Origin: a virus
Length of the DNA stretch: 35,458 nucleotides
Direction: 5' to 3' (one strand)
Virus record (IMG/VR): IMGVR_UViG_3300009194_000028
Location: 1 to 35,458 of that record
This document shows positions 475 to 34,221 of the stretch, one piece after another (positions within the stretch are counted from its first letter, which is position 1; every line of letters begins with the position of its first letter). Made by a program: the position numbers and the translations under genes. The notes below the pieces were generated by a model, which worked only from the letters and a program-made list of their open reading frames with translations, was not told where the DNA came from and ran no database searches.

Positions 475-475
475 A

Positions 476-20157: not shown

Positions 20158-20641
20158 GCGGTTGTTATCTAAGCGTGTTTCTAAGTTTATGCCATGGTAT
20201 CTTTTCGGAATTGTTATAGGTACGTCCACATATATGGGCGTATCAGGTATAAGTGCTGTATTTTCCATATTTTTAATTTCCACGCTGTTATCATGCGTTT
20301 TGAAGTCGTACTTTGATTACGTGGTCGATCCATCATGCAACTTCGTCATTGATAATGTTCATGACTATATGGATTCTCAATATGGTAGTAATGCGAGCAA
20401 TGATGAGTTCAGTCATACTCGGCGGACACGTATTATATACACTATATCCGCCATTTTTAATATAGTGGCGCTTTGTGCGCTGATATTAATAATATCTTTT
20501 GCGGTAAATAGCATTATTTTTTTGAATATTGACTCGATGGCAGTATCAATGGCTTATGTTGTGATTGCAGTCTTTACATATTATATAATCACATTTTTAC
20601 AGAACGTTAATACTTTAGTAAGTTATAGGAAATTTAGATGA
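20141..20641 (+). CDS. Four-helix membrane protein, third of the set
   Basis: The protein has a helix pair at about 15-60 (LFGIVIGTSTYMGVSGISAV and following) and another at about 105-160. The loop between them, which includes FVIDNVHDYMDSQYG, is shorter than in the proteins at 17849 and 19378. The order, two helices, loop, two helices, is the same. I use the ATG pair at 20141/20144; the frame can also open at GTG 20135. The ribosome site is weak, suggesting coupling to upstream translation. Its stop overlaps the next start (ATGA). Confidence 0.6.
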   Translation: MMNLIERLLSKRVSKFMPWYLFGIVIGTSTYMGVSGISAVFSIFLISTLLSCVLKSYFDYVVDPSCNFVIDNVHDYMDSQYGSNASNDEFSHTRRTRIIYTISAIFNIVALCALILIISFAVNSIIFLNIDSMAVSMAYVVIAVFTYYIITFLQNVNTLVSYRKFR

Positions 20642-21588
20642 ATCCATTCGTGTGTTATAGATTTCTACGTTCCACAAAACGGTTTAAAAAAACATCTCTT
20701 AAAACGTTTAAGTCCTTAAGTTATGAACACATGGTTCCTAGCTCAACCATCTATAGACTGAGTTACGCCCTTAAATCCAATTCTGAATCTATCGAAGGAC
20801 TACTGTTTGAACGCGAAAAAGTTGATAATATGACTTATGATGTATTGTATGAATGGGTTCCAGAAGGTTGTGGATCTATGTATTATAATAATTATAAGTT
20901 AGATTTCGATATGATTCAAATAGCTACAGTAGATGAACTGAATTATTTACTAAAGGCTTATAGGAAGGTGTTTGAATCCTTATATAGTAAATATGGTATG
21001 AATTTACTTAGACAACATTTAGAGATTGATGAGTATAATCGTAAAATGATTGATCCACTGGATAAAGATTGGAATCTCGCAAAAGACGCATTAAATGTAT
21101 ATGGTTTTGAATCTGATACCTATTTGGACATTGTGCACTCTATTATTGAGACAAAAATTAAGGAAACTGTTAATCATTTTAATAATAACTACATATCACA
21201 TACACAGTTTATAGATCGTATCCTAACTACATATAAGATGTCGTCGTACTTACATGGCTATTCACACCGCATTATTGAACATTTGAAGAATACAATGTAT
21301 AGAGATGTTATTGATCGTCACATTGACGATATCGCCTCAGAAATCCGTGACTATGCAATGGTTACTAACAGATACCTGTGTTATGATAACGGCAAATTTG
21401 TGTCTGTGAAATATATTAGTAATGAAGAGAAAACCAAGATTATCAGGAAAATGGCCATTGAAAAGAACGCTTCTAATAATTTCATCGAAACACTTAACGT
21501 TGTAAAAATGTATAAAGATGCAAATGTGCGCTATAATCCGTCAAACGTTTTGAATTATCTGAAGATTAAGAAAGTTATTGAGAAATAG
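20638..21588 (+). CDS. Unknown 316-residue helical protein
   Basis: Long, soluble, mostly helical and Tyr/Asn/Lys rich, with a basic start (RFLRSTKRFKKTSLKTFK) and a basic end (NVLNYLKIKKVIEK). The region IETLNVVKMYKD near residue 287 loosely resembles the C-terminal motif of the 30.8-32.9 kb proteins. No catalytic motif is visible. It is the last gene of the unit that starts at 18585; clpP then has its own promoter. Confidence 0.6.
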   Translation: MNPFVCYRFLRSTKRFKKTSLKTFKSLSYEHMVPSSTIYRLSYALKSNSESIEGLLFEREKVDNMTYDVLYEWVPEGCGSMYYNNYKLDFDMIQIATVDELNYLLKAYRKVFESLYSKYGMNLLRQHLEIDEYNRKMIDPLDKDWNLAKDALNVYGFESDTYLDIVHSIIETKIKETVNHFNNNYISHTQFIDRILTTYKMSSYLHGYSHRIIEHLKNTMYRDVIDRHIDDIASEIRDYAMVTNRYLCYDNGKFVSVKYISNEEKTKIIRKMAIEKNASNNFIETLNVVKMYKDANVRYNPSNVLNYLKIKKVIEK

Positions 21589-22750: not shown

Positions 22751-22761
22751 TATAATTGATA

Positions 22762-22788
22762 AAAGAGAAGGTCAAAAGCCTTCTCTTT
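22762..22788 (+). terminator. Intrinsic terminator
   Basis: AAAGAGAAGG and CCTTCTCTTT pair perfectly over 10 bp with a 7-base loop, between the yqeY-like gene and the membrane protein at 22815. Confidence 0.75.
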
Positions 22789-22814
22789 AAATGTTTTAAA
22801 TAAAAGGAATACTT

Positions 22815-23876
22815 ATGATTGGATTTATCTGGTTTATTGTAGCAGTTACTATCTTTGCTATTTTTGCACCTTTTGTCATGAGATTCTTGTTCCCACACCG
22901 TGTATTGTGGCGAGAAGTGGCAGCAAGTATCGCATTGTCGATTGTATTCAGTGTTGTATGTTCGTTGGTTGTGATCTATGGCGGTAGTCTCAACACTGAA
23001 ATTCTTAACGGAAAGGTTACTAATAAGGCCCAAGAACAGGTTAGCTGTGAACATAGTTACCAAGTATGTTCGGGTAGTGGTGAAAATCGTGTCTGTACGA
23101 CGTACTATGAACACTCATACGATTATGATTGGGTAGTACATACAACAGTGGGTGAAATTGTCATTGACCGCGTTGACCGTCAGGGTACTAAAGAGCCACC
23201 CAGATTCAGTAAAGTTAAAATCGGTGAACACGCCGCAGTGAGTAATACATACGTAGACTATCTCAAAGGCATTGAGAGTTCACTACTTTATCGAAAGAAT
23301 CACAAGATTGTGAAAGAATACGAACGACTCATTCCTAGTTATCCAAGGGTATTTGACTATTATCGTACACGTCCTGTTATTTTTTCAGGCATTTCAGTAG
23401 ATAATGCAGAACGTAAAATGTACAATGACGCAATGCATGACGTTTTGAAAGAGATTGGTAACAGTAAACAAGTAAATATCATTGTGGTTATTGTAGATAG
23501 TGAAAATCCTGAATTTGCAGAATATCTGCGTAACGACTGGCATAATGGTCGTAAAAATGATCAAATTGTCGTAATCGGTGCGCCGGAATATCCTAAAGTA
23601 GAATGGTCTTATTCATTTGGTTGGTCTAAAAAACAGGATGTTAACCCATCGATTGACTACGACGTTACGCGTTTGGAACATCTTTCGCCTGAAGCTCTTG
23701 CTGAAACTGTGAAAACAAACGTCGTTAAGCATTTTAAACGCCGCCCTATGGAAGAGTTTAAAAGCTATCTTTGGGAAACCGAGATCGAGCTTTGGAAATT
23801 TGTTTTAGTCTTTTTCCTACAGATTGCGTTTAATGCGGGACTGTCATATTGGTGGTATCGGAATGACATCTATTAA
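22815..23876 (+). CDS. Membrane protein next to LemA-like gene
   Basis: The 353-residue protein has two N-terminal membrane helices (about 3-25 and 35-56), a long soluble domain and a C-terminal membrane helix (FVLVFFLQIAFNAGLSYWW, about 328-346). The soluble part begins with Cys78, Cys85 and Cys94, spaced as if for disulfides or a metal. It also contains a strand-helix region with NIIVVIVDSENPEF. The layout suggests an inner-membrane protein with one large domain on one side. It overlaps the next gene by 14 bases, which overlaps the LemA-like gene by 14, so the three make one coupled module. Function unknown. Confidence 0.65.
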   Translation: MIGFIWFIVAVTIFAIFAPFVMRFLFPHRVLWREVAASIALSIVFSVVCSLVVIYGGSLNTEILNGKVTNKAQEQVSCEHSYQVCSGSGENRVCTTYYEHSYDYDWVVHTTVGEIVIDRVDRQGTKEPPRFSKVKIGEHAAVSNTYVDYLKGIESSLLYRKNHKIVKEYERLIPSYPRVFDYYRTRPVIFSGISVDNAERKMYNDAMHDVLKEIGNSKQVNIIVVIVDSENPEFAEYLRNDWHNGRKNDQIVVIGAPEYPKVEWSYSFGWSKKQDVNPSIDYDVTRLEHLSPEALAETVKTNVVKHFKRRPMEEFKSYLWETEIELWKFVLVFFLQIAFNAGLSYWWYRNDIY

Positions 23877-24237
23877 GCACATAGATAATGCTCTCAATAC
23901 ATGGGAGTATTATCGAGATTTCGATATAGAGCTGTGTGGCGAATGTACCCGATTGTCACAAACTATTCTCAATCGAATTTCCCCAGAGTTAGTTCGTGAG
24001 CGCTTAAATTTATGTGGTTGTAAAGATAAACATGCGGAGAAACATATAAAAGAAATAAAAAAAGAGATAGGTAGGTGTGGTGTAATTGATGATGTATCGA
24101 TTGAAGTTTCATCATTTGCCTTGCCATTTGTACGAGTATATGTTTTAATATTCAAAGATAACCCTGAATCGCTGGGATTATTTAAACTTAAAAACTTAGA
24201 TAAAAAATATAGGAAGGTTTATAATGAGTGCACTTAA
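23863..24237 (+). CDS. Unknown 124-residue protein of the membrane/LemA module
   Basis: I start at the ATG at 23863 (MTSIKHIDNALNTW), just inside the preceding gene, rather than at the upstream frame opening. Two Cys pairs, CGEC and CGC, lie at about 27-30 and 53-55, with a further Cys at 77. The pattern of strand, helix, strand (DFDIELCGE ... RVYVLIFKD) recalls the small proteins at 24.9-26.3 kb. The end overlaps the LemA-like gene by 14 bases, so it is co-expressed. Its role in the module is unknown. Confidence 0.55.
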   Translation: MTSIKHIDNALNTWEYYRDFDIELCGECTRLSQTILNRISPELVRERLNLCGCKDKHAEKHIKEIKKEIGRCGVIDDVSIEVSSFALPFVRVYVLIFKDNPESLGLFKLKNLDKKYRKVYNECT

Positions 24238-24793
24238 AATAACAGGTATTGTATTTGCTTCAGTCTTTGCCCTACTACTGGTAATTGGTGTTTCATTTGG
24301 AGGCATGTATGTCTCATACAATGATCGAGCGGTCGATCTAGAATCACAGATTGTTGCACAGCATAAGGATTTGCAGAACATCAAATCCAACTACACATTG
24401 AAGATTCAAGAGATCGTGCAAGTTACCGACAAGTATAAGGACGATCTACGAGAGATTGTAGATGCAACGTTTGAAGGCCGTTACGGAAGCAATGGTTCCC
24501 AAGCCATGTTCCAATGGATTCAAGAACAAAATATTAATCTTGACCCGAGTGTGTACAAAGAAATTCAAGTCGCCATTAAAGCGGGTCGTGCAGAGTTTCA
24601 AAACGCGCAAACTCGATTTATCGATACAAAACGTATTTACAATCGAGAACTTAATAGTTTTGTGAGCGGCTTTTTCATGTCGAGTGTCAATGACTTTCCA
24701 AGTATTAACCTTGATGAATACAACACTATTGTTGCCGAATCAACACGCCGAGAATTTGAATCTGGCACAGATAGTGCGATCAAAATCAACTAA
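24224..24793 (+). CDS. LemA-like membrane-anchored protein
   Basis: The protein has one N-terminal membrane helix (about residues 6-30) followed directly by YNDRAVDLESQI. It then has long amphipathic helices and the closing signature IYNRELNSFVSGFFMSSVNDFP at about 143-164. This is the layout of LemA proteins (membrane anchor, 'YN..v' start, helical bundle, final YN.....N...fP motif). Bacterial LemA proteins face outward from the membrane and often pair with another membrane protein or a protease; the 353-residue neighbour may fill that role. AGGAAGG precedes the ATG and a strong terminator follows. In a phage it could act on the host envelope. Confidence 0.75.
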   Translation: MSALKITGIVFASVFALLLVIGVSFGGMYVSYNDRAVDLESQIVAQHKDLQNIKSNYTLKIQEIVQVTDKYKDDLREIVDATFEGRYGSNGSQAMFQWIQEQNINLDPSVYKEIQVAIKAGRAEFQNAQTRFIDTKRIYNRELNSFVSGFFMSSVNDFPSINLDEYNTIVAESTRREFESGTDSAIKIN

Positions 24794-24809
24794 TTGCTAC
24801 TGAGTATAC

Positions 24810-24829
24810 AAGGGGCTTTTGAGCCCCTT
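24810..24829 (+). terminator. Intrinsic terminator after the LemA-like gene
   Basis: AAGGGGCT and AGCCCCTT form a perfect 8-bp GC-rich stem with loop TTTG, followed by T-rich sequence. It closes the 22815-24793 module. Confidence 0.8.
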
Positions 24830-24859
24830 TGTCTTATGTGAAAACAAAGGAAGATTACG

Positions 24860-25201
24860 TTGCCAGATTATTCACTCTTGATCGATGAATTAGAAAGCTC
24901 TTGTAAATATCAATTATACGATTATGGTCTTTGCACTAATAAGGAAATGTGCAATTCAGGGGTGTTCCTACAATTTCAAATAGATGTGGTATCAATCAAT
25001 ACTCATAATGCAAAAAAGATAGTTAAATTTTATAACGCAGTTAAACATCTTTCAAATGATGGTATTGCTTTGAAACACTCATATGAAGAACATGGATTGG
25101 TTACTGGAAAACAATATAGGATCAGTAAGTTAGAGATTTTCATCTATCATTTGGATGTTTGTAAAGAAAATTTATCAAAAATGATGAACTATTATGCTTA
25201 G
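24860..25201 (+). CDS. Small alpha/beta protein, family with 25382 and 25832
   Basis: The start is a TTG with AAAGGAAG upstream; no ATG serves in frame. The 113-residue protein has a strand (VFLQFQIDVVSINT), a long helix (AKKIVKFYNAVKHLS), a turn, a second strand (RISKLEIFIYHLD) and a closing helix. The same strand-helix-strand-strand plan repeats in the proteins at 25382, 25832 and 33372. No known family recognised. Immediately downstream, a further copy of this unit reads on in another frame, so this gene may once have been part of a longer protein. Confidence 0.55.
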   Translation: MPDYSLLIDELESSCKYQLYDYGLCTNKEMCNSGVFLQFQIDVVSINTHNAKKIVKFYNAVKHLSNDGIALKHSYEEHGLVTGKQYRISKLEIFIYHLDVCKENLSKMMNYYA

Positions 25202-25381
25202 GGCTGAAAGCAACGATTGACGTAGATATAAACATAAGCCTGATCAATGAGACAAACTTCGCATCAGCATTAGATGTTGTCAGAATTATGAAATGAGTCG
25301 CATAGTAGTGATAATGTATTTTATAAACAAAACAACATTTTTTATATAGGGCGTAAGGTAAAAGCCTGCGTATATGTTTTT
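25201..25381 (+). pseudogene. Frameshifted remnant of the same small alpha/beta unit
   Basis: Directly after the stop at 25201 the frame-1 translation reads LGLKATIDVDINISLINETN, then FASALDVVRIMK and a stop. This aligns with the strand and helix of the 24860 protein (QIDVVSINTHN ... FYNAVKHLS). From about 25290 the coding pattern moves to frame 2 (DNVFYKQNNIFYIGRKVKAC, then VYVF), giving the second strand and running without a stop into the gene at 25382. No start codon or ribosome site is present. Two single-base changes, near 25195 and 25290, would join 24860-25825 into one long frame. Either a decayed middle gene or sequence errors. Confidence 0.55.
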
Positions 25382-25825
25382 ATGGACAAGCTAGATGTGC
25401 TAAGCAAAATATTTTCGTGTAAAACAATACTATTCACCAATTATCATGTTAGTGAATATTCAGATGATACATTCATGATTATTTCCATATCATCAAAAGC
25501 AAGCTCGCTTAATATAAAGAAAAAAATCTCGGACTTTATCATGTATGTGCATAATAATATGAATAATTTCCTTGGCGCTCTTCAAATGGATTGTTATAAA
25601 GAAGGCGGTAACGGTTTCGAGCCAGAAATGACAGTATATAAAATGCATATAATTCTAAGAAAGGATATTTCTCATTATATCAATGAGTATAAAAATATGT
25701 TTAATTACCTTAAACTGATAAATGGTAAAAATTTATTTATCGGCGATATTAGTATCAACAGTAGATTTTTAAATAACCCTGATAATATTCAGGTCATTGA
25801 TCGTATTATAAAAATAATGGAATGA
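25382..25825 (+). CDS. Small alpha/beta protein, second intact member
   Basis: The frame contains the family pattern: strand (DDTFMIISISSKASS), helix (IKKKISDFIMYVHNNMNN), strand (MTVYKMHIILRKD) and closing helices. The ATG at 25382 has no ribosome binding site, and the same frame is open and coding-like for about 90 bases before it. So the ATG may be internal to a longer protein disrupted upstream. It is followed by 25832 after 6 bases. Function unknown. Confidence 0.55.
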   Translation: MDKLDVLSKIFSCKTILFTNYHVSEYSDDTFMIISISSKASSLNIKKKISDFIMYVHNNMNNFLGALQMDCYKEGGNGFEPEMTVYKMHIILRKDISHYINEYKNMFNYLKLINGKNLFIGDISINSRFLNNPDNIQVIDRIIKIME

Positions 25826-25831
25826 AATATT

Positions 25832-26254
25832 ATGGGCGCAACCGTTATATCGATAACAGATTATAAGGAAAAAGGTAGCAGTGGACTATTGCATTCGTTA
25901 GAAATGGTTATAATCTTGGAACCGGATACGTATTATTTACGATATCACGGATTTATTGAAGGAAATATTAAGCAAGTTTTTGATAAGTTACAAAAGTGTT
26001 ATCCATCGGGTATTACTGTAAAACATTCATGTAGTGAGTTTGTAAAAGAATCCAGTAATACGAATATAATACTTAATAATTGTATCAGGGTACATGTTTA
26101 TTTTTTATATAAAGATGCTCCAACACTTTATAAGCTAAGAAGTCACGATTTTCTTCCCAAAGTCCCTGCATGTGATTACAGGGAATTTGAATATATACTT
26201 AAACATTCTATGGAGCCTACCTTTTTACATACGGCTATAAAATACAAAATATGA
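25832..26254 (+). CDS. Small alpha/beta protein, third member
   Basis: Again strand (LHSLEMVIILEP), helix (NIKQVFDKLQKCYP), an extended strand (GITVKHSCSEFVKE), a strand pair ending CIRVHVYFLYKD and a helical tail. It shares SxxHS-type residues after the helix (VKHSCSEF) with LKHSYEEHG in the 24860 protein, which supports homology. Short spacing to 25382 suggests one transcript. It ends just before the nadV promoter. No function can be assigned. Confidence 0.6.
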   Translation: MGATVISITDYKEKGSSGLLHSLEMVIILEPDTYYLRYHGFIEGNIKQVFDKLQKCYPSGITVKHSCSEFVKESSNTNIILNNCIRVHVYFLYKDAPTLYKLRSHDFLPKVPACDYREFEYILKHSMEPTFLHTAIKYKI

Positions 26255-26264
26255 AAATCATGTA

Positions 26265-26294
26265 TTGACATATTAGAAAACCGTAGTATAAATA
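26265..26294 (+). promoter_or_regulatory. Combined early-type and late-type promoter of nadV
   Basis: TTGACA at 26265-26270 is followed after 16 bp by TATAAA at 26287-26292. The same bases extend to the exact late octamer TATAAATA at 26287-26294. The site could therefore serve host-type sigma70 polymerase early and gp55-type polymerase late. Confidence 0.65.
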
Positions 26295-26302
26295 GTATTA
26301 GA

Positions 26303-26363
26303 GGTCAAAGAGACCCAACTATAGAAAAAGACCATAAGGTCTATTTAAATGGCGAAAGAGCCA
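26303..26363 (+). promoter_or_regulatory. Three small hairpins in the nadV leader
   Basis: Three short stem-loops follow one another in the untranslated leader. They are GGTC-AAAGA-GACC (26303-26315), AGACC-ATAA-GGTCT (26329-26342) and TGGC-GAAAGA-GCCA (26350-26363). The first and third share an AAAGAG loop/stem edge. The last one is 7 bases before the AGGAGAT ribosome site. They may protect the RNA or control translation; I see no known riboswitch match. Confidence 0.45.
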
Positions 26364-26386
26364 AACTACAATTAGGAGATAATATC

Positions 26387-27754
26387 ATGAACTATAATAA
26401 CTTTTTTCTACTGAGTGATTCTTATAAGCTTTCCCACTTTGAACAATATCCTGAAGGTACCACTAAAGTCTATTCATATATAGAAAGTCGTGGTGGTAAA
26501 TTTGACGAGCTACTATTTTTCGGTCTTCAGAAGTTTCTTGAAGATATCAATAATAATTTCCCAACAATGCAAGACGTTGAAGAAGCGCGTATCTTCTCAG
26601 AGGCACATGGTGTGAAATTCAACTACGAAGGTGCAAAAGCCTTGGTCGAACTGGGGTACTTCCCTATCAAAATACGCGCTGTCAAGGAAGGCATGATGGT
26701 ACCTGTTAAAAATGTTCTAGCGGTTATTGAAAACACCTTACCTGAATTTTATTGGCTTCCTTCCTTCTTAGAGCCTAGAATTCTTAAGTCAGTATGGTAT
26801 CCAACTACGGTAGCTACGTATAGTCGTGAATGTAAGTCTATAATTAAAAAATATATGGAACTTACTTCTGATACTACGGATGGTCTCGAATTCAAACTTC
26901 ACGATTTCGGCTTCCGTAGCGCGTCTAGTGATGAAAGTGCTGGTATTGCTGGTGCAGCACATCTAGTTAACTTTTGGGGCACTGACACTATGTTAGGCAT
27001 TCTAACAGCCATGCGTTACTATGACAGTGGTGTATGTGGATATAGTGTTGTTGCGGCAGAACACAGTACTATCACTTCACACGGTAAAGAAAACGAAGCG
27101 GCTGTATACGAACAGCTTATTGACGATAACCCAACTGGTATACTATCCGTCGTTTCAGACAGCTATGATATCTACAATGCGGTGTCTAACATTTTTGGTA
27201 AGCAGCTCAAGCAAAAGATTCTTGACCGTGATGGCGTATTCGTTGTTCGACCAGATAGTGGGAACCCTATTGAAATGGTATATGATGTTATCTCTTTATT
27301 GGCAGAGAACTTCGGATCATACAGAAATTCAAAAGGATATATGGTCCTGAATGACAAAGTTCGAGTCCTTCAAGGTGATGGAATTGATATAGAAATGGTA
27401 CGCCGAATCTGTGAAAATCTGAAAATAAACGGATGGTCCACCGACAATGTAGTCTTTGGTATGGGTGGTAAGCTACTACAAGATCATAACCGTGATACAC
27501 AGAAATTCGCGTTCAAGTGTTCATACATCGAGGTTAATGGTAAAGGACGCGATGTATTCAAAGATCCTGTGACTGATCGTGTCAAGGTTTCTAAGAAAGG
27601 AAGGCTATCACTTGTTAGAACTGAGGATGGGTTTAGAACGATTCCAGAATCTGAAGCCGGTGAGTATGATTTGCTCGAAACCGTATATCAAGATGGTATT
27701 ATTAAGCGCAAGCAAATCTTTGATGAAATACGACAACTAGCTGCAATTAAGTAA
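26387..27754 (+). CDS. nadV: Nicotinamide phosphoribosyltransferase NadV
   Basis: The 455-residue protein aligns with NadV and the animal enzyme NAMPT from LLSDSYKLSHFEQYP at the start through the core. AAEHSTITSHG has the active-site histidine at 226 (human His247), SDSYDIYNAV follows, and RPDSGNP has the aspartate at 290 (human Asp313). GGKLLQ and FKCSYIEVNGKG are also present. It makes nicotinamide mononucleotide from nicotinamide and PRPP, the first step in rebuilding NAD. It is shorter than NAMPT (491). It is a single gene with a combined promoter, a structured leader and a strong terminator. Large vibriophages such as KVP40 carry nadV, and nicotinamide salvage is known to help phages survive NAD-depleting defences. 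Confidence 0.95.
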   Translation: MNYNNFFLLSDSYKLSHFEQYPEGTTKVYSYIESRGGKFDELLFFGLQKFLEDINNNFPTMQDVEEARIFSEAHGVKFNYEGAKALVELGYFPIKIRAVKEGMMVPVKNVLAVIENTLPEFYWLPSFLEPRILKSVWYPTTVATYSRECKSIIKKYMELTSDTTDGLEFKLHDFGFRSASSDESAGIAGAAHLVNFWGTDTMLGILTAMRYYDSGVCGYSVVAAEHSTITSHGKENEAAVYEQLIDDNPTGILSVVSDSYDIYNAVSNIFGKQLKQKILDRDGVFVVRPDSGNPIEMVYDVISLLAENFGSYRNSKGYMVLNDKVRVLQGDGIDIEMVRRICENLKINGWSTDNVVFGMGGKLLQDHNRDTQKFAFKCSYIEVNGKGRDVFKDPVTDRVKVSKKGRLSLVRTEDGFRTIPESEAGEYDLLETVYQDGIIKRKQIFDEIRQLAAIK

Positions 27755-27764
27755 AGATGGGATA

Positions 27765-27786
27765 AAAGGAGGCTTAAGCCTCCTTT
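27765..27786. terminator. Intrinsic terminator after nadV
   Basis: A perfect palindrome with arms AAAGGAGGCTT and AAGCCTCCTTT can extend by further A-T pairs to GATAAA and TTTATC with one bulge. It ends nadV and isolates the virion-protein genes downstream. Confidence 0.8.
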
Positions 27787-27846
27787 ATCATTATCTCCAA
27801 GGAATAAATATAATAAACGTTTAAGCTTAATCCTTTGGAGCTATTA

Positions 27847-29007
27847 ATGACATACATTCCTGAGAAAGTAGACATCTCTAAGTTCGATGCATTTGGAAGA
27901 ATGCGTGTTTCTGACCCCCATACGTTGTTTGAATCACAAATGCAGTTTGATGAACAACCTCTTTTATGGGAAACAATTACTACTGGTGCCCCTACGTCTA
28001 TCCATATTCCATATCAATCGTCTCTTTCATTAGATGTCACAACAACAGGTGACAAAATTTTCAGGGAAACGTATGAAAAGTTCCGATATCAACCGGGCAA
28101 ATCACAGCTTATATTCATGACAGGTGTACTAGGTACCAATTCGGGTGGTATTAAGCGTGTTGGATATTTCAATGATGACAATGGGATATTTTACGAACAA
28201 CATCCAACCGAAGGTCTTCGCTTTGGTATCCGAAGCAATGTCTCAGATGGTTCAACCGTCACGCATGACTATGTGAACCAATCCTCTTGGAATATAGATA
28301 CTTTTAATGATATTGATCCTTCTAAATCGTTCATTATCGTCATCGATATGGAATGGTTGGGCATGGGTACTGTGCGCGTTGGTTTTGTACATAATGGAGC
28401 AATACGTTATGTGCATTCATTTCATCATGCAAACCTCATAGATACTGTATATATGGCAACTGCCAACCTTCCCTGTCGCTACGAAATTGAATATAGTACC
28501 GGAGCTGATTCACTATTACAGACATGTACGACAGTTATTTCCGAAGGTGGCTTTGTCAATAAAGGTATCGTTCGGTATGTGGACACAGGAACAACATCAA
28601 GGGATGTTTCAACCGAAACACCTGTTGTAAGTATAAAGCTTAAAGATGCCTATGCCGGTGCACAAATAATACCAGAAACTTGTGACGTACTCCAAACATC
28701 GAACAGTACTACCGTGCGATATAGGATTGTGGTTAGAAACACGCTAACGGGTGCCTCATGGACATCTGTAGATTCAGAATCAAGTGTTGAGTATGATATA
28801 TCAGCAACCTCATCTTCGGGTGGTATTGTAATCGCTGGTGGGTTTTTACCACCTAAATCGCCCATTCCGATAGACTTAGATTTCAGTAACATGCCACCAC
28901 TATGCACTGACTATAACAATAATAATATGATTTTAAGTGTACTTGTAGAAGGCATTGGTGGTAGTGCACCTATTTATTCGGGTATACGTTTTAGGGAGTT
29001 GAAGTAA
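27847..29007 (+). CDS. Probable virion structural protein, strand-rich (fibre, decoration or adhesin type)
   Basis: I start at the ATG at 27847 (MTYIPEKVDISKFDAFGRMR), since GGAG at 27837-27840 is well spaced and the TTG at 27835 lies in that site. The 386-residue protein starts FDAFGRMRVSDPHTLFESQM, a motif I recognise from phage surface-protein families. It continues with long beta-rich sequence and many Gly, Ser and Thr. No signal peptide or membrane segment. The stop overlaps the next ATG, which encodes a second strand-rich protein. A near-match to the late octamer (AATAAATA at 27803) fits late expression. Exact place in the virion unknown. Confidence 0.6.
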   Translation: MTYIPEKVDISKFDAFGRMRVSDPHTLFESQMQFDEQPLLWETITTGAPTSIHIPYQSSLSLDVTTTGDKIFRETYEKFRYQPGKSQLIFMTGVLGTNSGGIKRVGYFNDDNGIFYEQHPTEGLRFGIRSNVSDGSTVTHDYVNQSSWNIDTFNDIDPSKSFIIVIDMEWLGMGTVRVGFVHNGAIRYVHSFHHANLIDTVYMATANLPCRYEIEYSTGADSLLQTCTTVISEGGFVNKGIVRYVDTGTTSRDVSTETPVVSIKLKDAYAGAQIIPETCDVLQTSNSTTVRYRIVVRNTLTGASWTSVDSESSVEYDISATSSSGGIVIAGGFLPPKSPIPIDLDFSNMPPLCTDYNNNNMILSVLVEGIGGSAPIYSGIRFRELK

Positions 29008-29822
29008 TGCCAGTAACAACAAAATTAACATTCAGTGAAGTACCAAAAGTTGACACTTCGGTAGACTATTTTGATAGTTCTGATAAAGAGATTATTGTAG
29101 ATAAGCCAAATGGTGTTGGTTGGAAACATGAAAATAGCTTTCTTGGTAACAACTCAGTCATCCATGTTTGGAAAAAAGGTGTGCCAGATTTTGACGAAGG
29201 ATATGAATTATATTGGACAGGATACGGTGATGATGTAACCAATGGTATTATTGGTGAAGGTCAAGAAATTTTCATTAACATCTCAGATACCGATACAACA
29301 GACCAATCAGTAGAGTTTGAGTTCATAGCACAGGATACATTTTTATATGGAGGTCATGCAGTATGGTCTGGTACTCAGATTAAAGATTCTTTTTCTCTCC
29401 TTGTGATTGCCAAAGAAAATGTTTTTGTGACTACAGGCGACCAAGATTTGACCATCGGCAACGATGGTCGTGCAATATATGTAGGTACTGGAAATGGTAC
29501 ACATTCATTCTCTGATACACCTGTGATAACTGAAAATAAAACTGGAACAGGTTATTGGAATTGTGATTTTGAGACAGGATTGCAACCGGCGACTAATGGT
29601 GATGGTTTTTATGATATATTAAATTATGAAAAAACGGTTGCAAGAATAATCAACAAGGTACATACTATCGGTGCTGACGGAACATTTGATATAACCGCTG
29701 AGAATTCTTGGAACATCCTACATGGTTATAAATTTCGATTGGTGGCACACGTAGACTCAAATAACCCTCACGCATGGCAATGTGGTTTATCACTGAGTAT
29801 GTTCAGACGTAGCACTATATAG
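29007..29822 (+). CDS. Probable virion surface protein, strand-rich
   Basis: The 271-residue protein is rich in Gly, Thr, Asp and aromatic residues in short alternating strands (for example EIFINISDTDTTDQSVEFEF). The final part resembles a fibre or head-decoration tip (HSFSDTPVITENKTGTGYW). It is coupled to the preceding gene by a one-base overlap, so they probably form parts of one structure. No enzyme motif. Its stop codon lies within a perfect 14-bp inverted repeat. Confidence 0.5.
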   Translation: MPVTTKLTFSEVPKVDTSVDYFDSSDKEIIVDKPNGVGWKHENSFLGNNSVIHVWKKGVPDFDEGYELYWTGYGDDVTNGIIGEGQEIFINISDTDTTDQSVEFEFIAQDTFLYGGHAVWSGTQIKDSFSLLVIAKENVFVTTGDQDLTIGNDGRAIYVGTGNGTHSFSDTPVITENKTGTGYWNCDFETGLQPATNGDGFYDILNYEKTVARIINKVHTIGADGTFDITAENSWNILHGYKFRLVAHVDSNNPHAWQCGLSLSMFRRSTI

Positions 29823-29844
29823 CACATGTCATGTGCTATATAGT
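29814..29844. terminator. Perfect 14-bp inverted repeat at the end of the structural genes
   Basis: ACTATATAGCACAT at 29814-29827 pairs exactly with ATGTGCTATATAGT at 29831-29844 around a 3-base centre. The stop codon (29820-29822) is inside the left arm. There is no T tract, so it may be a processing or stabilising hairpin rather than an intrinsic terminator. Confidence 0.6.
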
Positions 29845-29870
29845 AAATAGATAAAACGTTGGAGGTTTCT

Positions 29871-30014
29871 ATGGAAATTCTAATTATTACGTTACTTTGT
29901 ATAGTGTCTCTTTTGTCTATCGTAAAACTTCTATTTTCATATCGCTTTATTGTTATTGACCCTTCGACATATAGGAAATACTCACAACGTTGGTGGTTTT
30001 GGTTTATTAAATAA
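29871..30014 (+). CDS. Small single-pass membrane protein
   Basis: A 47-residue protein with a strong GGAGG site. Residues 2-24 form a membrane helix (MEILIITLLCIVSLLSIVKL), followed by a basic, aromatic tail ending QRWWFWFIK, which would lie on the membrane surface. The size and shape fit small phage membrane effectors; the target is unknown. The terminator-like repeat at 29814 lies upstream. Confidence 0.7.
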   Translation: MEILIITLLCIVSLLSIVKLLFSYRFIVIDPSTYRKYSQRWWFWFIK

Positions 30015-30034
30015 TTATACAAAGGAATCTTCTA

Positions 30035-30598
30035 ATGGAACATTTATCATTATATAAAAAGGGTGTTATATCATTTACATATGATGAGCCACATATAATT
30101 GACACACCAATATTTAATGACTCTAATATAATGCAGTACCTTCAAGAGAATATTAAGCTTGAACGTTCATATTCAATCAGAGATGTCATCGAGACACTTA
30201 GTGCTTTTCCAGAGTTACAATGTATACATTCTTTTGCAAGTGATCTAGCTAATTTACCGATTAGTTCCAACCTTCTGTTGAGAAATCATGACCTGAACTA
30301 TATCTCATTCGAATATATACATGAGATGTACTATGTTAATGCAAATGTTAACCGTACTGAAACTTACACGTATATTGGTGTGTATTCTGGTCATAATAAT
30401 GAGGTTGATAATGATATTCTGGATTATTGTCTTGAGGATATCATAGATTTGCCTATCGTTTTAAGGACTGGTATAGAGCGGAAAGATAATATAGAAAGGA
30501 TTTATATTGGTAATGTAACTTTTTTGACCTTTTTATATGAGATCATTGATTATATTTCTCTCCTTATAGATACAACTACTAATACCAAATCGGCTTGA
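30035..30598 (+). CDS. Unknown 187-residue protein
   Basis: A mixed alpha/beta, Ile/Tyr/Asn-rich protein. A region with four strands (YISFEYIHEMYYVNA and TYTYIGVYSGHNN, about 87-120) precedes an acidic helix (DNDILDYCLEDIIDL). It ends with a hydrophobic helix (FLTFLYEIIDYISLLID, about 163-179) that might touch a membrane. AAAGGAAT precedes the ATG. No family recognised. Confidence 0.6.
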   Translation: MEHLSLYKKGVISFTYDEPHIIDTPIFNDSNIMQYLQENIKLERSYSIRDVIETLSAFPELQCIHSFASDLANLPISSNLLLRNHDLNYISFEYIHEMYYVNANVNRTETYTYIGVYSGHNNEVDNDILDYCLEDIIDLPIVLRTGIERKDNIERIYIGNVTFLTFLYEIIDYISLLIDTTTNTKSA

Positions 30599-30647
30599 TT
30601 TCCTGTACTTTTATACTAAATAAAGGTGTAAACTAAGGAGGTCATTC

Positions 30648-30800
30648 ATGGTAGTTGCAGCACTGATATACTTAGGTATTGTGGGAGGTATTGTCGCACT
30701 AATGTACGCATGCATGGGTGTGACATTTTTCATGGTTCAGGATGATGTTCATGATCGACAACAACCCCACTACCTATATCATCCATCCAGAAGAGGGTAA
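30648..30800 (+). CDS. Small membrane protein
   Basis: A 50-residue protein with the strong site AAGGAGGT. Residues 2-29 form a membrane helix rich in Gly, Ala, Ile and Val (ALIYLGIVGGIVALMYACMG). A hydrophilic tail with several His and Arg follows (DRQQPHYLYHPSRRG). A hairpin follows directly. Like 29871, it looks like a small effector made in quantity; nothing shows its target. Confidence 0.7.
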   Translation: MVVAALIYLGIVGGIVALMYACMGVTFFMVQDDVHDRQQPHYLYHPSRRG

Positions 30801-30814
30801 TAACATACCCTCTT
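30791..30814 (+). terminator. Hairpin after the 50-residue membrane protein gene
   Basis: AAGAGGGTA and TACCCTCTT form a perfect 9-bp stem around ATAACA, overlapping the stop codon. No T tract follows, and a promoter for the next gene begins at its right edge. Confidence 0.55.
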
Positions 30815-30841
30815 GATCCTACCCTCAATAAATGCTATCAT
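30813..30841 (+). promoter_or_regulatory. Promoter placed for a leaderless transcript
   Basis: TTGATC at 30813-30818 and TATCAT at 30836-30841 are 17 bp apart, with TG at 30833-30834. The expected start point, about 7 bases after the -10, falls on the ATG at 30848, and there is no ribosome binding site before that ATG. Confidence 0.6.
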
Positions 30842-30847
30842 TGCATC

Positions 30848-31291
30848 ATGTCCCAAAAATTAGAGAACATTGATTATTATTTGATAGTCTACAACTTACT
30901 AAATCGACTGTCATACTATCTTTCCCAAGATGATTGCGACTCAGCCTTGATTGAATTCAATAATTTTATTGCTTCAAAAGAGAATGTTGGTGCTTTATTT
31001 ATCTATTTTATCACGGATAAACGGTTTGTTCCTAGTAATGTACTAGAGTGTATGAACATTTTCATTAATGATAGTGTATTATCAAAATTTATAAAACTTG
31101 TTCCAACGACTATTATAATGTATACTAGTAGTATATATCTCGATGGTCCTTGTAATCTGAGGTTCATATATAATAATATGATGAAAGCAACGAACCATAA
31201 CTGGGATACAATCGATTGGAATTCAGAAGAACTAAAGAAAGTAATACGATATGTGAAGCTAAAACTACCTAGAGAAGTCTTAGATATATGA
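30848..31291 (+). CDS. Helical protein, first member of a tandem paralog array
   Basis: The 147-residue protein is all-helical. Its first half (YNLLNRLSYYLSQDDCDSAL ... FIYFITDKRF) matches the middle of the protein at 31746 (ILQIATAILDGKNYSDAINY ... FINYLMRDYN). It ends in WNSEELKKVIRYVKLKLP, a basic amphipathic helix shared by the neighbours. No known family. The ATG coincides with the predicted transcription start, so it may be translated from a leaderless mRNA. It overlaps the next gene as ATGA. Confidence 0.6.
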   Translation: MSQKLENIDYYLIVYNLLNRLSYYLSQDDCDSALIEFNNFIASKENVGALFIYFITDKRFVPSNVLECMNIFINDSVLSKFIKLVPTTIIMYTSSIYLDGPCNLRFIYNNMMKATNHNWDTIDWNSEELKKVIRYVKLKLPREVLDI

Positions 31292-31728
31292 AAAAATACC
31301 CAACAGATTACTCACTAACTACTAAAAATATTTACATCTTCAATGTCATACGAAAAATGGTTTCGGTTATTGATAGTGATATTGAACATTTCGAAAAATG
31401 TATTGAAATACGAAAAATTGTCAAGATTGATATCATTGACGAAGAAATGGAAATACCGTTTGTTGTTTATAAAGAGATTGGCTGCTATTACCCAAAAATT
31501 TTGAATGAGTACAGTCTTAGTATCTTCAATCCCCGCTTTATTTCCTCTTTAATCTATAGTATTGGGAAGTATAGTAAAAATGCCGACAATGATATGACGA
31601 TAAATATGGGTCAGATAATGGGGAGTGATCTGAGTTGGGATATTACGCAACAGCATGATGCTGTTGCAAAATCATTAAACTATGCTAAGATCAAAGGGTA
31701 TTATAGCTTGCTATCATACGACCATTAG
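31288..31728 (+). CDS. Helical protein, second array member
   Basis: A 146-residue helical protein that ends AVAKSLNYAKIKGYYSLL, the counterpart of the KKVIRYVKLKLP helix of its upstream neighbour. It contains a central strand-like section (KIDIIDEEMEIPFVVY). The gene contains a perfect quasi-palindrome, GCAACAGCAT and its complement, at 31647-31667. ATGA coupling to the upstream gene is clear. Function unknown. Confidence 0.6.
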   Translation: MKKYPTDYSLTTKNIYIFNVIRKMVSVIDSDIEHFEKCIEIRKIVKIDIIDEEMEIPFVVYKEIGCYYPKILNEYSLSIFNPRFISSLIYSIGKYSKNADNDMTINMGQIMGSDLSWDITQQHDAVAKSLNYAKIKGYYSLLSYDH

Positions 31729-31745
31729 ATATAAAAAGTTTGGAT

Positions 31746-32153
31746 ATGATTAATAATATTGTCGTAAATATAAAACCTTCGCTCATAATCGAAAGGGAAG
31801 CTATGCTATGTGACATAATGTTTGACGGCCAATGGTACACATCCGAATCAAGTGAAGAGAAAGATATGGTAACTAATTATGCCGAGAGAATAAAATCCAC
31901 ACGTATATCAAATATTTTGCAAATTGCAACAGCGATTCTGGATGGAAAAAATTATTCCGATGCGATTAACTATATTGAGGAACGTATCATTACTGAAGGA
32001 TTGGCTGATGACTTCATAAATTATCTCATGCGTGATTATAATCGCTATGTGTTTAGGAGGTGTGATAAATATCAACTGATTACAGATAGAATAGTCGCGC
32101 AATTCATAAAAAATCCTAATATATATATGAATATTTTTTCAAAGATCAAATAG
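31746..32153 (+). CDS. Helical protein, third array member, truncated by a frameshift
   Basis: I use the ATG at 31746; a TTG at 31740 is also possible. The first 130 residues match the array pattern, but the frame stops at 32153 before the C-terminal motif. That motif appears in the -1 frame (see next entry). A run of six T at about 32134-32139 is the likely site of a lost base. With it restored, the protein would be about 211 residues, longer than its neighbours. Confidence 0.55.
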   Translation: MINNIVVNIKPSLIIEREAMLCDIMFDGQWYTSESSEEKDMVTNYAERIKSTRISNILQIATAILDGKNYSDAINYIEERIITEGLADDFINYLMRDYNRYVFRRCDKYQLITDRIVAQFIKNPNIYMNIFSKIK

Positions 32154-32380
32154 TCGCGGTATTCGATATTGATGAATCGTCTGAAGTTATACAGAAAGTA
32201 CTTAGATTTGTAAAGCTTAAGAAGCCCGATGCTCACATTCTCTTTAATAGGCGTGAATGGATAGACCCTTATGTCAATCCCATACTAAGTAACCATATAT
32301 ATAATTATTTCTTAGGCAAAGAATGGATAGTGAATGAAATAATTGAGAAATTGAACATTAGACCATTTAAGGAAATATAA
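32134..32380 (+). pseudogene. C-terminal coding part of the third array member in a shifted frame
   Basis: In frame 2 the sequence reads EYFFKDQIVAVFDIDESS, then EVIQKVLRFVKLKKPDAHIL, then about 45 more residues to a stop at 32378-32380 that overlaps the next ATG. The middle block matches the array C-terminal motif. There is no start codon, so it is only meaningful as the continuation of the gene at 31746. Its codon use is coding-like to the end. Confidence 0.6.
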
Positions 32381-32808
32381 TGAGTAATAAAAACCAAGCT
32401 GAAAAAATATTAGCAGTGTCTATGAATACACTACTAGATAACAATTTGAATGAAGAAGTGAATAACCTTCTTAAATCGTCTATTGAGATGAGTAATTTTT
32501 CAATAGACGCCGCCTTTAAGGATGTTGAAGATAGGTTCAAGAATCAATTAGTCACAAGCCTGACACGATCTACATTTATCGACATCATGAAGATGGAAAG
32601 TTATCTATATAATATGAAATATTTCCACGAATTCTGTGCCGAATACGATGAATATAAAAATGCTTTAAATTTCATGAAGGTTTGCAAACCTAAGTTTTTC
32701 ACTCAAAAAGAGGAAGAATCTGAAATTGATAAAATGATAGAAAAATATAAGGCTCTTACACAAGGGCAACGTCCAAACAGCACTCATATTGGTGTGGTCC
32801 ACACATAG
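32380..32808 (+). CDS. Helical protein, fourth array member, truncated by a frameshift
   Basis: A 142-residue helical protein with the array motif as EYKNALNFMKVCKPKFF at about 98-114, followed by a charged segment (TQKEEESEIDKMIEKYKAL). The last residues of this frame (NSTHIGVVHT) run past the point where coding seems to move to the -1 frame. ATG overlaps the previous shifted-frame stop (TAATG). Function unknown. Confidence 0.55.
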   Translation: MSNKNQAEKILAVSMNTLLDNNLNEEVNNLLKSSIEMSNFSIDAAFKDVEDRFKNQLVTSLTRSTFIDIMKMESYLYNMKYFHEFCAEYDEYKNALNFMKVCKPKFFTQKEEESEIDKMIEKYKALTQGQRPNSTHIGVVHT

Positions 32809-32948
32809 ATCCATTTTCTAGAAAAACCGATGACTATAAATGGGATGCGTATTACACTAGTTCTACCACTAGATTAAACGACGAGAAAATTTTAGATGCG
32901 TATATGAAAACGTTTGGTAAATCAAATGATGACAAAGATCAGTCTTGA
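32790..32948 (+). pseudogene. C-terminal coding part of the fourth array member in a shifted frame
   Basis: From about 32790 frame 3 reads SYWCGPHIDPFSRKTDDYKW, then DAYYTSSTTRLNDEKILDAY and an acidic end (KSNDDKDQS) to a stop at 32946-32948. There is no start codon and the composition is coding-like, so it is best read as the true C-terminus of the gene at 32380, joined by one missing base near 32800. The restored protein would be about 189 residues. Confidence 0.5.
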
Positions 32949-32973
32949 AATCTGAAATATAATGCCTTATAAT
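32945..32973 (+). promoter_or_regulatory. Strong sigma70-like promoter
   Basis: TTGAAA at 32945-32950, a 17-bp spacer and TATAAT at 32968-32973. It drives the gene at 33005, which has AAAAGG before its ATG. Confidence 0.75.
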
Positions 32974-33004
32974 GACTTTCAAGATTTAGAGAAAAGGTGT
33001 TTAT

Positions 33005-33397
33005 ATGTGCCATGAAATGAAAGCAGCTTTAGAAGATCTATTCCCTGAGTATGTTCAAGAGAACTTGGGCGTCAATATCCTGAAGGTGAAGGCTAAGGGA
33101 GGTTATTCTGAAAAACATAACAGTATAGTAATCCAAGGAACTATGTACAACTGTGTTGAGGAAGATTATTCTATGTGGTCATCTGTAGAAACTGATAAAG
33201 GTTTGGTTACCTGTTTGAGCCGTTCCAAGGGAGCTTTCGCGATTGGTACACTGAAAGGTAAACAAGCTTTCATTGAAGTATTCACTATAGCTCTTCGCAT
33301 TCAAAGCTATCCAGATCTACAGCGAATAGTTAATTTATGTAAACTCAAGAACAGTGATTTAAGAAAGATTCATGCACAAATTGATCATACATGGTAA
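33005..33397 (+). CDS. Unknown 130-residue protein
   Basis: A mixed protein with a helical start (MCHEMKAALEDLFPEYVQEN). A strand-rich middle follows (NSIVIQGTMYNCVEEDYSMW and TDKGLVTCLSRSKGAFAIGT), and then a helical end. Its expression signals are good. It overlaps the next gene by 26 bases, so the two are coupled. No family recognised. Confidence 0.65.
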   Translation: MCHEMKAALEDLFPEYVQENLGVNILKVKAKGGYSEKHNSIVIQGTMYNCVEEDYSMWSSVETDKGLVTCLSRSKGAFAIGTLKGKQAFIEVFTIALRIQSYPDLQRIVNLCKLKNSDLRKIHAQIDHTW

Positions 33398-33965
33398 TGA
33401 CATCACTAAGCGTCTTAATTCAATAGGCACTTTCCCTACAAGATTATTATTATCACATGTTGTATTAAAAGGTTCTGACAAGAATATCAGAATCTTTTAT
33501 AGCATAACAATTGGTCATGATAAAATAAATTATATTTCTAATCTTGGAGAAAAGCTTTCTCAGAAGAATATTATGATCATATCTTATAAATCAACTTCTA
33601 CGTCAAATACGTGCACAATCAAGTGCATGGACACAAAACCATCACTAATGGTAAGATTTGTAATCCACGTACATCGTTTATTGAAGAATACGAGTGTGAA
33701 TCATTCAGGATATTCATATTATCCACAATATCTTGCTCACTCTTTGTATCTAAAAGACTATCCCAATATGGGCCAAGGTGGTCGTTATGCTTCTCTACAA
33801 CTAGACCATATTCATCACTTACGGGCACTGACGTTATTTCAATATCACCCACGTCAGCTTCAAAGAATACAGAAAAGGTTCCTTCTAAATACAAACTTAC
33901 TACCACTTTGTTGCGTTTTTCCCTTTCTGTTGCTTCTTCGTCATCATAGTCATTATCAGAGATAG
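33372..33965 (+). CDS. Member of the 24.9 kb alpha/beta family running into antisense sequence
   Basis: Residues 1 to about 110 have the family plan: strand (NIRIFYSITIGHD), helix (INYISNLGEKLSQ), strand (NIMIISYKSTSTS) and strand (LMVRFVIHVHRLLKN). From about 33700 on, the frame reads the complement of the convergent gene 33619-34221 and has the Leu/His-rich look of an antisense frame. The natural stop seems to be missing. So the true protein is probably about 110-120 residues, and the rest is read-through caused by a deletion or join. Confidence 0.5.
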   Translation: MHKLIIHGNDITKRLNSIGTFPTRLLLSHVVLKGSDKNIRIFYSITIGHDKINYISNLGEKLSQKNIMIISYKSTSTSNTCTIKCMDTKPSLMVRFVIHVHRLLKNTSVNHSGYSYYPQYLAHSLYLKDYPNMGQGGRYASLQLDHIHHLRALTLFQYHPRQLQRIQKRFLLNTNLLPLCCVFPFLLLLRHHSHYQR

Positions 33966-34221
33966 ATAATACATCTATGTTAAAGCTGATTGATATCTTA
34001 TGGTCTGATTCGTCGTTTAAATAATAAACATCAACAAGGCCGTTATTTTTATCTGTACCATTGTAAACAAATTCATATCCTGAAGATTCTATCTTGTCAC
34101 CAAAATGTTTTTTAACATCCTGTTGGAATACAAGAAACAATTCTTCCTGTATGGTATCCTCTTGACTCTTCCCCTTTTGGGTAGCAGACTCTAATAGGTC
34201 CATGTATTTTTTCATACTCAT
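33619..34221 (-). CDS. Acidic protein with a possible capsid-targeting N-terminus
   Basis: The 200-residue protein starts MSMKKYMDLLESATQKGKSQ, a short amphipathic helix ending LLE before Ser. This resembles T4 internal-protein targeting peptides cut by gp21, and the N-terminus of the protein at 13483. The body is acidic and strand-rich. Its last 25 or so residues (GLQILPLVMVLCPCT) lie antisense to the plus-strand gene at 33372 and look like read-through past a lost stop. AAGGAG precedes the ATG, and a GATAAATA late-like octamer and a TTGAAT/TATAGT pair lie upstream on the minus strand. Confidence 0.6.
   Translation of the reverse strand: MSMKKYMDLLESATQKGKSQEDTIQEELFLVFQQDVKKHFGDKIESSGYEFVYNGTDKNNGLVDVYYLNDESDHKISISFNIDVLSISDNDYDDEEATEREKRNKVVVSLYLEGTFSVFFEADVGDIEITSVPVSDEYGLVVEKHNDHLGPYWDSLLDTKSEQDIVDNMNILNDSHSYSSINDVRGLQILPLVMVLCPCT

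What the first reader, a model, noticed from the sequence alone, without database searches (positions are those of the whole stretch)
30848..32948. Tandem array of helical paralogs with a shared basic C-terminal helix
Four consecutive genes carry versions of x-E-x-x-K-x-L-x-Y/F-x-K-x-K-P (KKVIRYVKLKLP, AKSLNYAKIKG, QKVLRFVKLKKP, KNALNFMKVCKP), and the protein at 16956 ends similarly (KKNIEYRIKNM). The first two copies and the third share further helical similarity. I know no family like this. Repeated expansion suggests variation under selection, for example against host defence proteins.
Basis: partly seen in the sequence, partly recalled or inferred. Interest (0 to 1): 0.7.

Follow-up and report, generated by a model that had tools for sequence, protein, structure and literature searches.

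The report
Jumbo-phage proteins sharing a docking-like tail
Four neighbouring genes of a giant bacterial virus encode small proteins that differ almost everywhere but share one short stretch, which resembles a tail motif carried by dozens of multiplied genes in a relative; they are probably accessory proteins with changing bodies and a shared docking end, of unknown target.

Summary
The window is a fragment of a T4-like jumbo phage; its closest named relative is Salicola phage SCTP-2. The shared motif in four consecutive products (30848-32948) is real: no shuffle of 1000 reached the four's best 15-residue block. Outside it the bodies show no clear similarity, the fifth example (16956) fails, and genes 3 and 4 have broken frames, probably sequence errors. 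No Pfam or PHROG family claims them. But HMM and profile-profile searches do not detect it, so membership is unproven. Best reading: a diverged tandem cluster of an expanded accessory set, variable helical bodies on a conserved docking element. Boldest: phage counterparts of poxvirus ankyrin/F-box adaptors.

The parts
30848..31291 (+). Array gene 1, 147 aa, predicted helical
   Evidence: ORF; Pfam matches only below cut-off, no PHROG match; 100% identical over 147 residues in the sibling contig; AF2 all helices, pLDDT 44.1 alone, 55.9 with the other array products as alignment
31226..31270 (+). Shared motif in gene 1 (EELKKVIRYVKLKLP)
   Evidence: best site of the SCTP-2 cap matrix, rank 1 of 133, score reached by 3 of 1560 decoys
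31288..31728 (+). Array gene 2, 146 aa; its ATG overlaps the stop of gene 1 by 4 bases (ATGA)
   Evidence: ORF
31657..31701 (+). Shared motif in gene 2 (DAVAKSLNYAKIKGY)
   Evidence: cap matrix rank 1 of 132
31740..32380 (+). Array gene 3, broken frame: ORF 31740-32153, continued in open frame 32120-32380
   Evidence: one other break in this window (tail sheath) is absent from the sibling contig
32183..32227 (+). Shared motif in gene 3, in the second fragment (EVIQKVLRFVKLKKP)
   Evidence: cap matrix rank 1 of 199 in the read-through protein
32380..32948 (+). Array gene 4, broken frame: ORF 32380-32808, continued in open frame 32751-32948; start overlaps the stop of gene 3 by one base
32647..32691 (+). 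Shared motif in gene 4 (DEYKNALNFMKVCKP)
   Evidence: cap matrix rank 1 of 170 in the read-through protein
20638..21588 (+). 316-aa protein ending SNVLNYLKIKKVIEK: the next best carrier of the array motif, just upstream of clpP (21658)
   Evidence: E = 0.026 with a profile of the four among 2688 ORFs; but cap matrix rank only 11 of 302
25382..25825 (+). 147-aa protein with KNMFNYLKLIN, weak carrier
   Evidence: E = 1.0; cap matrix score reached by 42 of 1560 decoys

Best explanation
The array is a tandem cluster of accessory genes of an SCTP-2-like jumbo phage whose products combine a fast-changing, mostly helical body with one conserved short element near the C-terminus. The element is a diverged form of the C-terminal cap of a lineage-expanded SCTP-2 set (PHROG 5925, partly DUF4116-type helical repeats). 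Working model: the variable body binds a target, probably a host protein, and the conserved cap docks every member onto the same phage or host partner; tandem duplication and divergence of bodies give a repertoire. Shown: the shared motif, its non-chance nature, bodies without clear similarity, the tandem same-strand layout, the large capped set in SCTP-2, cap-like ends in the same phage. Inferred: homology of the array motif to the cap. Not shown: docking, target binding, any partner.
For: Motif block beyond chance. SCTP-2 is the nearest named relative (sheath 51% over 784 residues; 71% in its C-terminal part). In 535 SCTP-2 ORF-genes the pattern h-N-[KRYFL]-h-K-h occurs 31 times against 5.0 +- 2.3 in shuffles (0 of 100 reach it), in the 51 window products 8 times against 0.4 (0 of 300) (pattern chosen after seeing the sequences, homologous copies counted apart). 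Cap model A4: 29 sites at E <= 0.001 in SCTP-2 (13 of them in the model; one in an open frame of only 37 aa), which by position fall into eight clusters of 2-5 on one strand each, some interrupted by other genes. Same phage, sibling contig: a 299-aa ORF ending FSDFINKMKLKHGV and a 127-aa open frame ending DEFLHRIKRLKLKYLFSRV, E = 3.4e-4 and 0.0056 with A4. SCTP-2 gene 307, with KKVLQFLKLKRSD near its start, lies between the homologues of two genes that follow the array; its match to the array is weak (E 0.007-0.16). Capped SCTP-2 gene 430 matches PHROG 5925 only around its cap (E = 0.0094) and gene 432 weakly (0.0031), so a kept cap on a changed body has precedent.
Against: The A4 cap model finds nothing in the window at E <= 10. 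All of the top 25 domain scores of the 40-column cap HMM were shuffled decoys, none an array protein. Profile-profile comparison of the array with the family: probability 0.1%; of the six-row motif alignment (the four plus g20638 and g25382) with the family: 0.4%, though aligned in the cap register. Three of the four array proteins have low matrix scores (2.7-2.9, reached by 185-199 of 1560 decoys); only position, not height, speaks for them. The array has Y/F where caps have K/R, and lacks the conserved W and the GP. PHROG 5925 and DUF4116 are not among the matches of its pieces at E <= 1. In a Y/F form the pattern is not enriched in SCTP-2 (37 found, 34.0 expected; a second form 4 found, 10.4 expected).
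Confidence: 0.45

Rival explanations
1. Diverged tandem duplicates of one small helical protein unrelated to the SCTP-2 caps: the motif is simply the last conserved core element of a common fold.
For: Tandem order, with overlapping stop and start between genes 1-2 and 3-4; shared block; local alignments 1-3 and 2-3, motif included, are reached by 1 of 300 shuffles each; AF2 confidence rises from 44.1 to 55.9 when the other products are given as alignment, without a control alignment.
Against: With motif and tail removed the bodies are at chance in 6 of 6 pairs with BLOSUM62 and 5 of 6 with BLOSUM45. The motif sits at different distances from the ends. The cap-matrix register match would be coincidence.
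Confidence: 0.27
2. Convergence: four AT-rich, lysine-rich helical proteins that happen to carry similar amphipathic basic segments; no common origin or function of the motif.
For: Frequent occurrence of the pattern in viral contigs; bodies without clear similarity; no HMM detects the motif as part of a family.
Against: 0-1 of 1000 shuffles with the same composition and 0-1 of 1000 real quadruples reach the block score; register match to a matrix from another phage.
Confidence: 0.2
3. A short linear motif (h-N-[KRYF]-h-K-h) acquired independently by several unrelated families of the lineage, as a common localisation or docking signal, rather than inherited with the cap. This overlaps with the best explanation in function, not in origin.
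For: In SCTP-2 a second tandem array (genes 340-345, PHROG 16508, alpha/beta by inspection) keeps the same core, SQHDLNRLKLxD; the 15-column cap matrix ranks its register first in 5 of these 6 proteins and in 9 of 12 when six others are added that were picked because they fit the pattern. Window g13052 (VNFIKISNRELYNLL) resembles that array (E = 1.1e-4 among 95 proteins or so; 0.035 in PHROGs).
Against: Profile-profile comparison of the array motif with genes 340-345 finds nothing (probability 0.5%); the matrix of that family fits the four array proteins less well (27 of 2000 permutations).
Confidence: 0.15

Closest known systems
PHROG 5925 / DUF4116 (PF13475) proteins of Salicola phage SCTP-2 (genes 205, 430, 432, 433, 480-483, 518, 522 tested)
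   Same: Small proteins in same-strand clusters; element near the C-terminus with pattern h-x-x-h-K-h-K and often a P; bodies diverge while the end is kept.
   Different: Array has Y/F instead of K/R at the third motif position, no conserved W, no GP; no match to PHROG 5925 or DUF4116 or to the cap models; in genes 3 and 4 the motif is not terminal. Of the ten SCTP-2 proteins 4 list DUF4116 at E <= 0.0076, 2 of them at or above Pfam's cut-off.
PHROG 16508 (SCTP-2 genes 340-345)
   Same: Tandem array of about 150-aa paralogues with a conserved N-x-h-K-h core towards the C-terminus.
   Different: Strand-rich stretch before the motif (by inspection); no significant similarity to the window array. 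Window g13052, not the array, is the relative.
Poxvirus ankyrin-repeat/F-box (PRANC) proteins
   Same: Only in architecture: multigene set, variable repeat body for targets, short conserved C-terminal docking element (PMC9414399 and PMC3185573: openings of the abstracts seen in a search listing; the position of the F-box at the C-terminus is recalled).
   Different: No sequence relation tested or claimed; bacteria lack the SCF ubiquitin ligase that the F-box recruits (general knowledge).
DUF4116-type repeats of Agrobacterium phage Atu_ph07 and of MW202615
   Same: Same helical repeat as the SCTP-2 set.
   Different: Matches end before the cap part of the profile; 0 caps at E <= 0.001 in either record, one at 0.09 in Atu_ph07.

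Membership tests
PHROG 5925 / DUF4116-type capped proteins | Match of the body to the family profile | tested here: not met
   PHROG 5925 and DUF4116 are not among the matches of the five array pieces at E <= 1 (filters drop most above 0.1); profile-profile probability 0.1%
PHROG 5925 / DUF4116-type capped proteins | C-terminal cap W...FY...F...[IV][NK][KR][LM]K[LI]xxGP | tested here: inconclusive
   Matrix register match in 4 of 4, permutation 1 of 2000; HMM cap model finds 0 sites in the window at E <= 10; W, K/R at position 3 and GP absent
PHROG 5925 / DUF4116-type capped proteins | Same-strand clusters of small genes | tested here: met
   Four consecutive + strand genes, ends overlapping between 1-2 and 3-4; SCTP-2 caps in eight clusters of 2-5
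PHROG 5925 / DUF4116-type capped proteins | Helical repeat (alpha-solenoid) fold | tested here: inconclusive
   AF2 models of gene 1 all-helical but pLDDT 44.1 and 55.9; Foldseek with the second: 140 matches at E <= 10, 0 at E <= 0.001
PHROG 16508 | Match to the family profile | tested here: not met
   PHROG 16508 not among the array's matches; hhalign probability 0.5%; a profile of genes 340-345 gives the four array proteins E of 1.3 to 3.3
Poxvirus ANK/F-box-like adaptor (works-like only) | C-terminal element binds a degradation or effector machine | not testable with these tools
   Needs interaction experiments

The most novel reading that the evidence does not exclude
SCTP-2-like jumbo phages encode a large repertoire of interchangeable adaptor proteins: dozens of multiplied proteins with variable helical (and, in a second family, alpha/beta) bodies that bind different host proteins, all delivered through one short near-C-terminal docking motif to a common machine. 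A candidate machine is the phage's own Clp system: SCTP-2 is annotated with ClpA, ClpX, ClpS and ClpP homologues, and this window has a clpP directly after g20638, a possible motif carrier. It would be a bacterial-virus counterpart of poxvirus ankyrin/F-box substrate adaptors, and the window array a divergent cassette of it. No call tests the Clp link.
Probability: 0.1. Interest if true: 0.88.

Novelty: new variant of a known kind. Interest (0 to 1): 0.45.

Why it matters
Most genes of jumbo phages have no known function. A short element shared by dozens of otherwise diverging, multiplied proteins gives a handle: find the one partner that the element binds, and the function of a whole gene set becomes testable. 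For the window alone the matter is modest: four orphan genes with a shared motif whose link to the large set is suggestive, not proven. None of the titles and abstract openings listed by five literature searches describes this cap; they cover only open-licence papers, and I read only passages of PMC7824862 and PMC8078820, so a description in the body of another paper cannot be excluded.

Tried and rejected
Relatives of the array proteins themselves: none besides the same phage. tblastn against 50,697 phage records for gene 1, the first ORF of gene 4 and both pieces of gene 3 (gene 2 was not searched there) gave nothing below E = 2; four viral-contig scans, one per gene, genes 3 and 4 by their first pieces, and one genome scan for gene 1 found only the sibling contig, and only for gene 1.

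T4 late promoter TATAAATA (recalled consensus): 7 in the window against 6.8 expected, none at the array, so no case for late expression. Sigma-70-like sites in 29800-33700: 28 found, 25.0 expected.

Structure: two AF2 jobs, both low confidence; the Foldseek search of the second gave nothing usable.

My first impression that window genes g23824, g24860, g25382 and g25832 belong to the SCTP-2 340-345 family was tested with a profile and not supported (E 0.06 to 3.6); only g13052 was (E 1.1e-4). Motif enrichment in the window outside the array is weak (three patterns: 5 found/2.5 expected, 23 of 200 shuffles; 3/0.7, 8 of 200; 1/1.5, 159 of 200). In the Y/F forms SCTP-2 shows no enrichment (37/34.0, 4/10.4, 13/20.8); the enrichment comes, by its listing, mainly from the K/R form.

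Rows dropped: the cap set of 22 rows included one PHROG 16508 protein caught by the regular expression; it stayed in the HMM and was dropped before (21 rows). One search skipped quadruples with a product over 350 aa (SCTP-2) or 400 aa (window). One search examined 80 of the loci that brought in.
Full report
What the window is. The window is a virus record of 35,458 bases. Its tail sheath matches Salicola phage SCTP-2 (440 kb, T4-like jumbo phage of a halophile) at 51% over 784 residues and at 71% in the C-terminal part; ClpP, Nampt, a dNMP-kinase-like protein and two proteins upstream of the array (27835, 29007) also have SCTP-2 homologues. A sibling contig, IMGVR_UViG_3300027365_000010 (92 kb, here G001), is the same phage: window 1-3000, 2338-7337 and 19007-31288 align to it at 99.75-99.99%, and the spacing agrees within 3 bases; 7338-19006 was not compared. 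It ends at window base 31288, that is at the end of array gene 1.

The observation. Four consecutive + strand products carry the motif: KKVIRYVKLKLP, AKSLNYAKIKGY, QKVLRFVKLKKP and KNALNFMKVCKP. A search for the best common ungapped block finds exactly this block at widths 10, 12 and 15; shuffled versions of the same proteins reach its score in 1, 0 and 0 of 1000 trials and random quadruples from 33 other window proteins in 0, 1 and 1 of 1000. Genes 3 and 4 are split over two frames each. The window's tail sheath is split in the same way, but the sibling contig reads through it; errors in the window sequence are therefore the likely cause, although the sibling does not cover genes 3 and 4. With motif and tail removed, the bodies are at chance: 6 of 6 pairs with BLOSUM62; with BLOSUM45 one pair (genes 1 and 2) is marginal, 15 of 400 shuffles. 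A profile of the four finds g20638 (C-terminal SNVLNYLKIKKVIEK) as the next carrier at E = 0.026 and, as the best SCTP-2 hit, an ORF that holds gene 307 at E = 0.16 (0.086, 0.007 among about 95 proteins). Gene 307 has KKVLQFLKLKRSD near its start and lies between the SCTP-2 homologues of two genes downstream of the array (genes 300 and 324).

No family claims the array. Pfam lists only matches below its cut-offs, the best PHROG match has E = 0.011, and tblastn in phages and the viral-contig and genome scans return nothing but the same phage (gene 2 was not put to tblastn in phages).

The lead from SCTP-2. Scoring tandem quadruples of SCTP-2 ORF-genes in the same way gave 24 of 251 at or above the array's score (overlapping quadruples of one array count apart); so such scores are what real tandem families give. 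In four of the ten best at either width the shared block has a core like that of the array: NKMKIKYGP or KKLKLKYGP, NRLKLTD, NKLKL. In 535 SCTP-2 ORF-genes the pattern h-N-[KRYFL]-h-K-h occurs 31 times against 5.0 +- 2.3 expected (0 of 100 shuffles), in the 51 window products 8 times against 0.4 (0 of 300); the pattern was chosen after the fact and homologous copies are counted separately. Of the 43 sites listed for a slightly wider pattern in products up to 330 aa, 21 belong to one capped set. Ten members were scanned: 10 of 10 match PHROG 5925 (genes 430 and 432 only at 0.0094 and 0.0031, the others at 1.7e-28 or better), 4 of 10 list DUF4116 at E <= 0.0076, 2 of them at or above Pfam's cut-off. 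They end in a cap of about 40 residues, W...FY...F...[IV][NK][KR][LM]K[LI]xxGP. A model of 13 caps finds 29 sites in SCTP-2 at E <= 0.001 (the 13 included, one in a 37-aa open frame); by position they form eight clusters of 2, 5, 4, 2, 4, 3, 4 and 5, each on one strand, some interrupted by other genes. The related DUF4116-type proteins of Atu_ph07 and MW202615 match only in the repeats and have no cap at E <= 0.001. DUF4116 was modelled as an alpha-solenoid by contact prediction, against a helical bundle by homology modelling (PMC8078820, passages read).

The same phage has cap-like ends. In G001 the cap model finds a 299-aa ORF ending FNDRRFSDFINKMKLKHGV (E = 3.4e-4) and a 127-aa open frame ending DEFLHRIKRLKLKYLFSRV (E = 0.0056). 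The window itself has none at E <= 10.

Is the array motif a diverged cap? The summed score at that register is reached by column-permuted matrices, at any offset from -60 to +7, in 1 of 2000 trials; g20638 fails the test (rank 11 of 302; 8 of 2000 when it is added). Only gene 1 also scores high in absolute terms (11.3; 3 of 1560 decoys); the other three score 2.7-2.9, like 185-199 of 1560 decoys. The 40-column HMM lists no array protein among its top 25 domains, all of them decoys, and profile-profile comparison gives 0.4% probability although the alignment falls in the cap register, 0.1% for full proteins. The array has an aromatic residue where caps have a basic one and lacks the W and GP. 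I therefore rate homology of motif and cap as the likeliest single reading, and membership as unproven.

A second SCTP-2 family, alpha/beta by inspection, tandem genes 340-345 (PHROG 16508), keeps a similar core, NRLKL, towards its C-terminus. Its profile recognises window gene g13052 (E = 1.1e-4) but not the array. Either the two families converged on one short docking motif or both are old parts of one system; this could not be decided (one search is partly circular, because half of its proteins were chosen by the motif).

How it most likely works (inference). Conserved short end, variable helical body and tandem multiplication are what one expects of a repertoire of binding proteins with a common docking element, as in poxvirus ankyrin/F-box proteins (abstract openings of PMC9414399 and PMC3185573 in a search listing). 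Nothing here shows a partner, a target or the timing of expression. A comparative survey of jumbo phages (PMC7824862, passages read) mentions SCTP-2 once, and a lineage-specific expansion (zinc ribbons) in Bacillus phage G; the passages found do not mention this set.

Verdict.

Noticed in passing
window 2972-5838: The tail sheath gene is split into two overlapping ORFs; the sibling contig of the same phage has an unbroken frame there, so the window sequence probably contains small errors.
   Followed up: yes
window 31288; G001 contig end 92453: The sibling contig ends exactly at the junction of array genes 1 and 2; possibly an assembly break caused by strain variation in the array.
   Followed up: no
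L005:5632-6372 and L004:10058-10798 (SCTP-2 genes 434 and 486): Two 246-aa proteins, very similar by eye, close to capped clusters, differing mainly towards a GWRPCLTLIT C-terminus that looks like the variable end of a diversity-generating retroelement target (recalled resemblance; sequences).
   Followed up: no
window 26387-27754: Nampt-like gene, 55% identical to SCTP-2 gene 104; SCTP-2 has an annotated NMN adenylyltransferase/ADP-ribose pyrophosphatase gene directly before it (gene 103), which was not seen next to the window's copy.
   Followed up: no
window 14487-15281, 7329-7715, 33619-34221: These match, mostly weakly, members of an SCTP-2 tandem cluster (genes 214-219), some of whose N-termini read M-K-[VI]-N-D-[IL]-L: a further expanded family.
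   Followed up: partly
window 7991-8725 (-): Relative of three SCTP-2 proteins (40%, 30% and 28% identical) and of PHROG 12810, unknown function.
   Followed up: no
window 32945-32973, 18525-18553, 89-118, 35374-35346: Of 7 sigma-70-like sites with 11-12 of 12 consensus bases in the window, these 4 end 29-33 bases before a start codon, the first directly behind the array; suggests host-polymerase (early) promoters.
   Followed up: partly
window 13052-13486: Relative of the SCTP-2 tandem family 340-345 (PHROG 16508): E = 1.1e-4 with a family profile, 0.035 in PHROGs.
   Followed up: yes
window 11522-12589: Rossmann-like N-terminal half (by inspection) followed by a class II aldolase domain (Pfam, E = 2.8e-6).
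   Followed up: no
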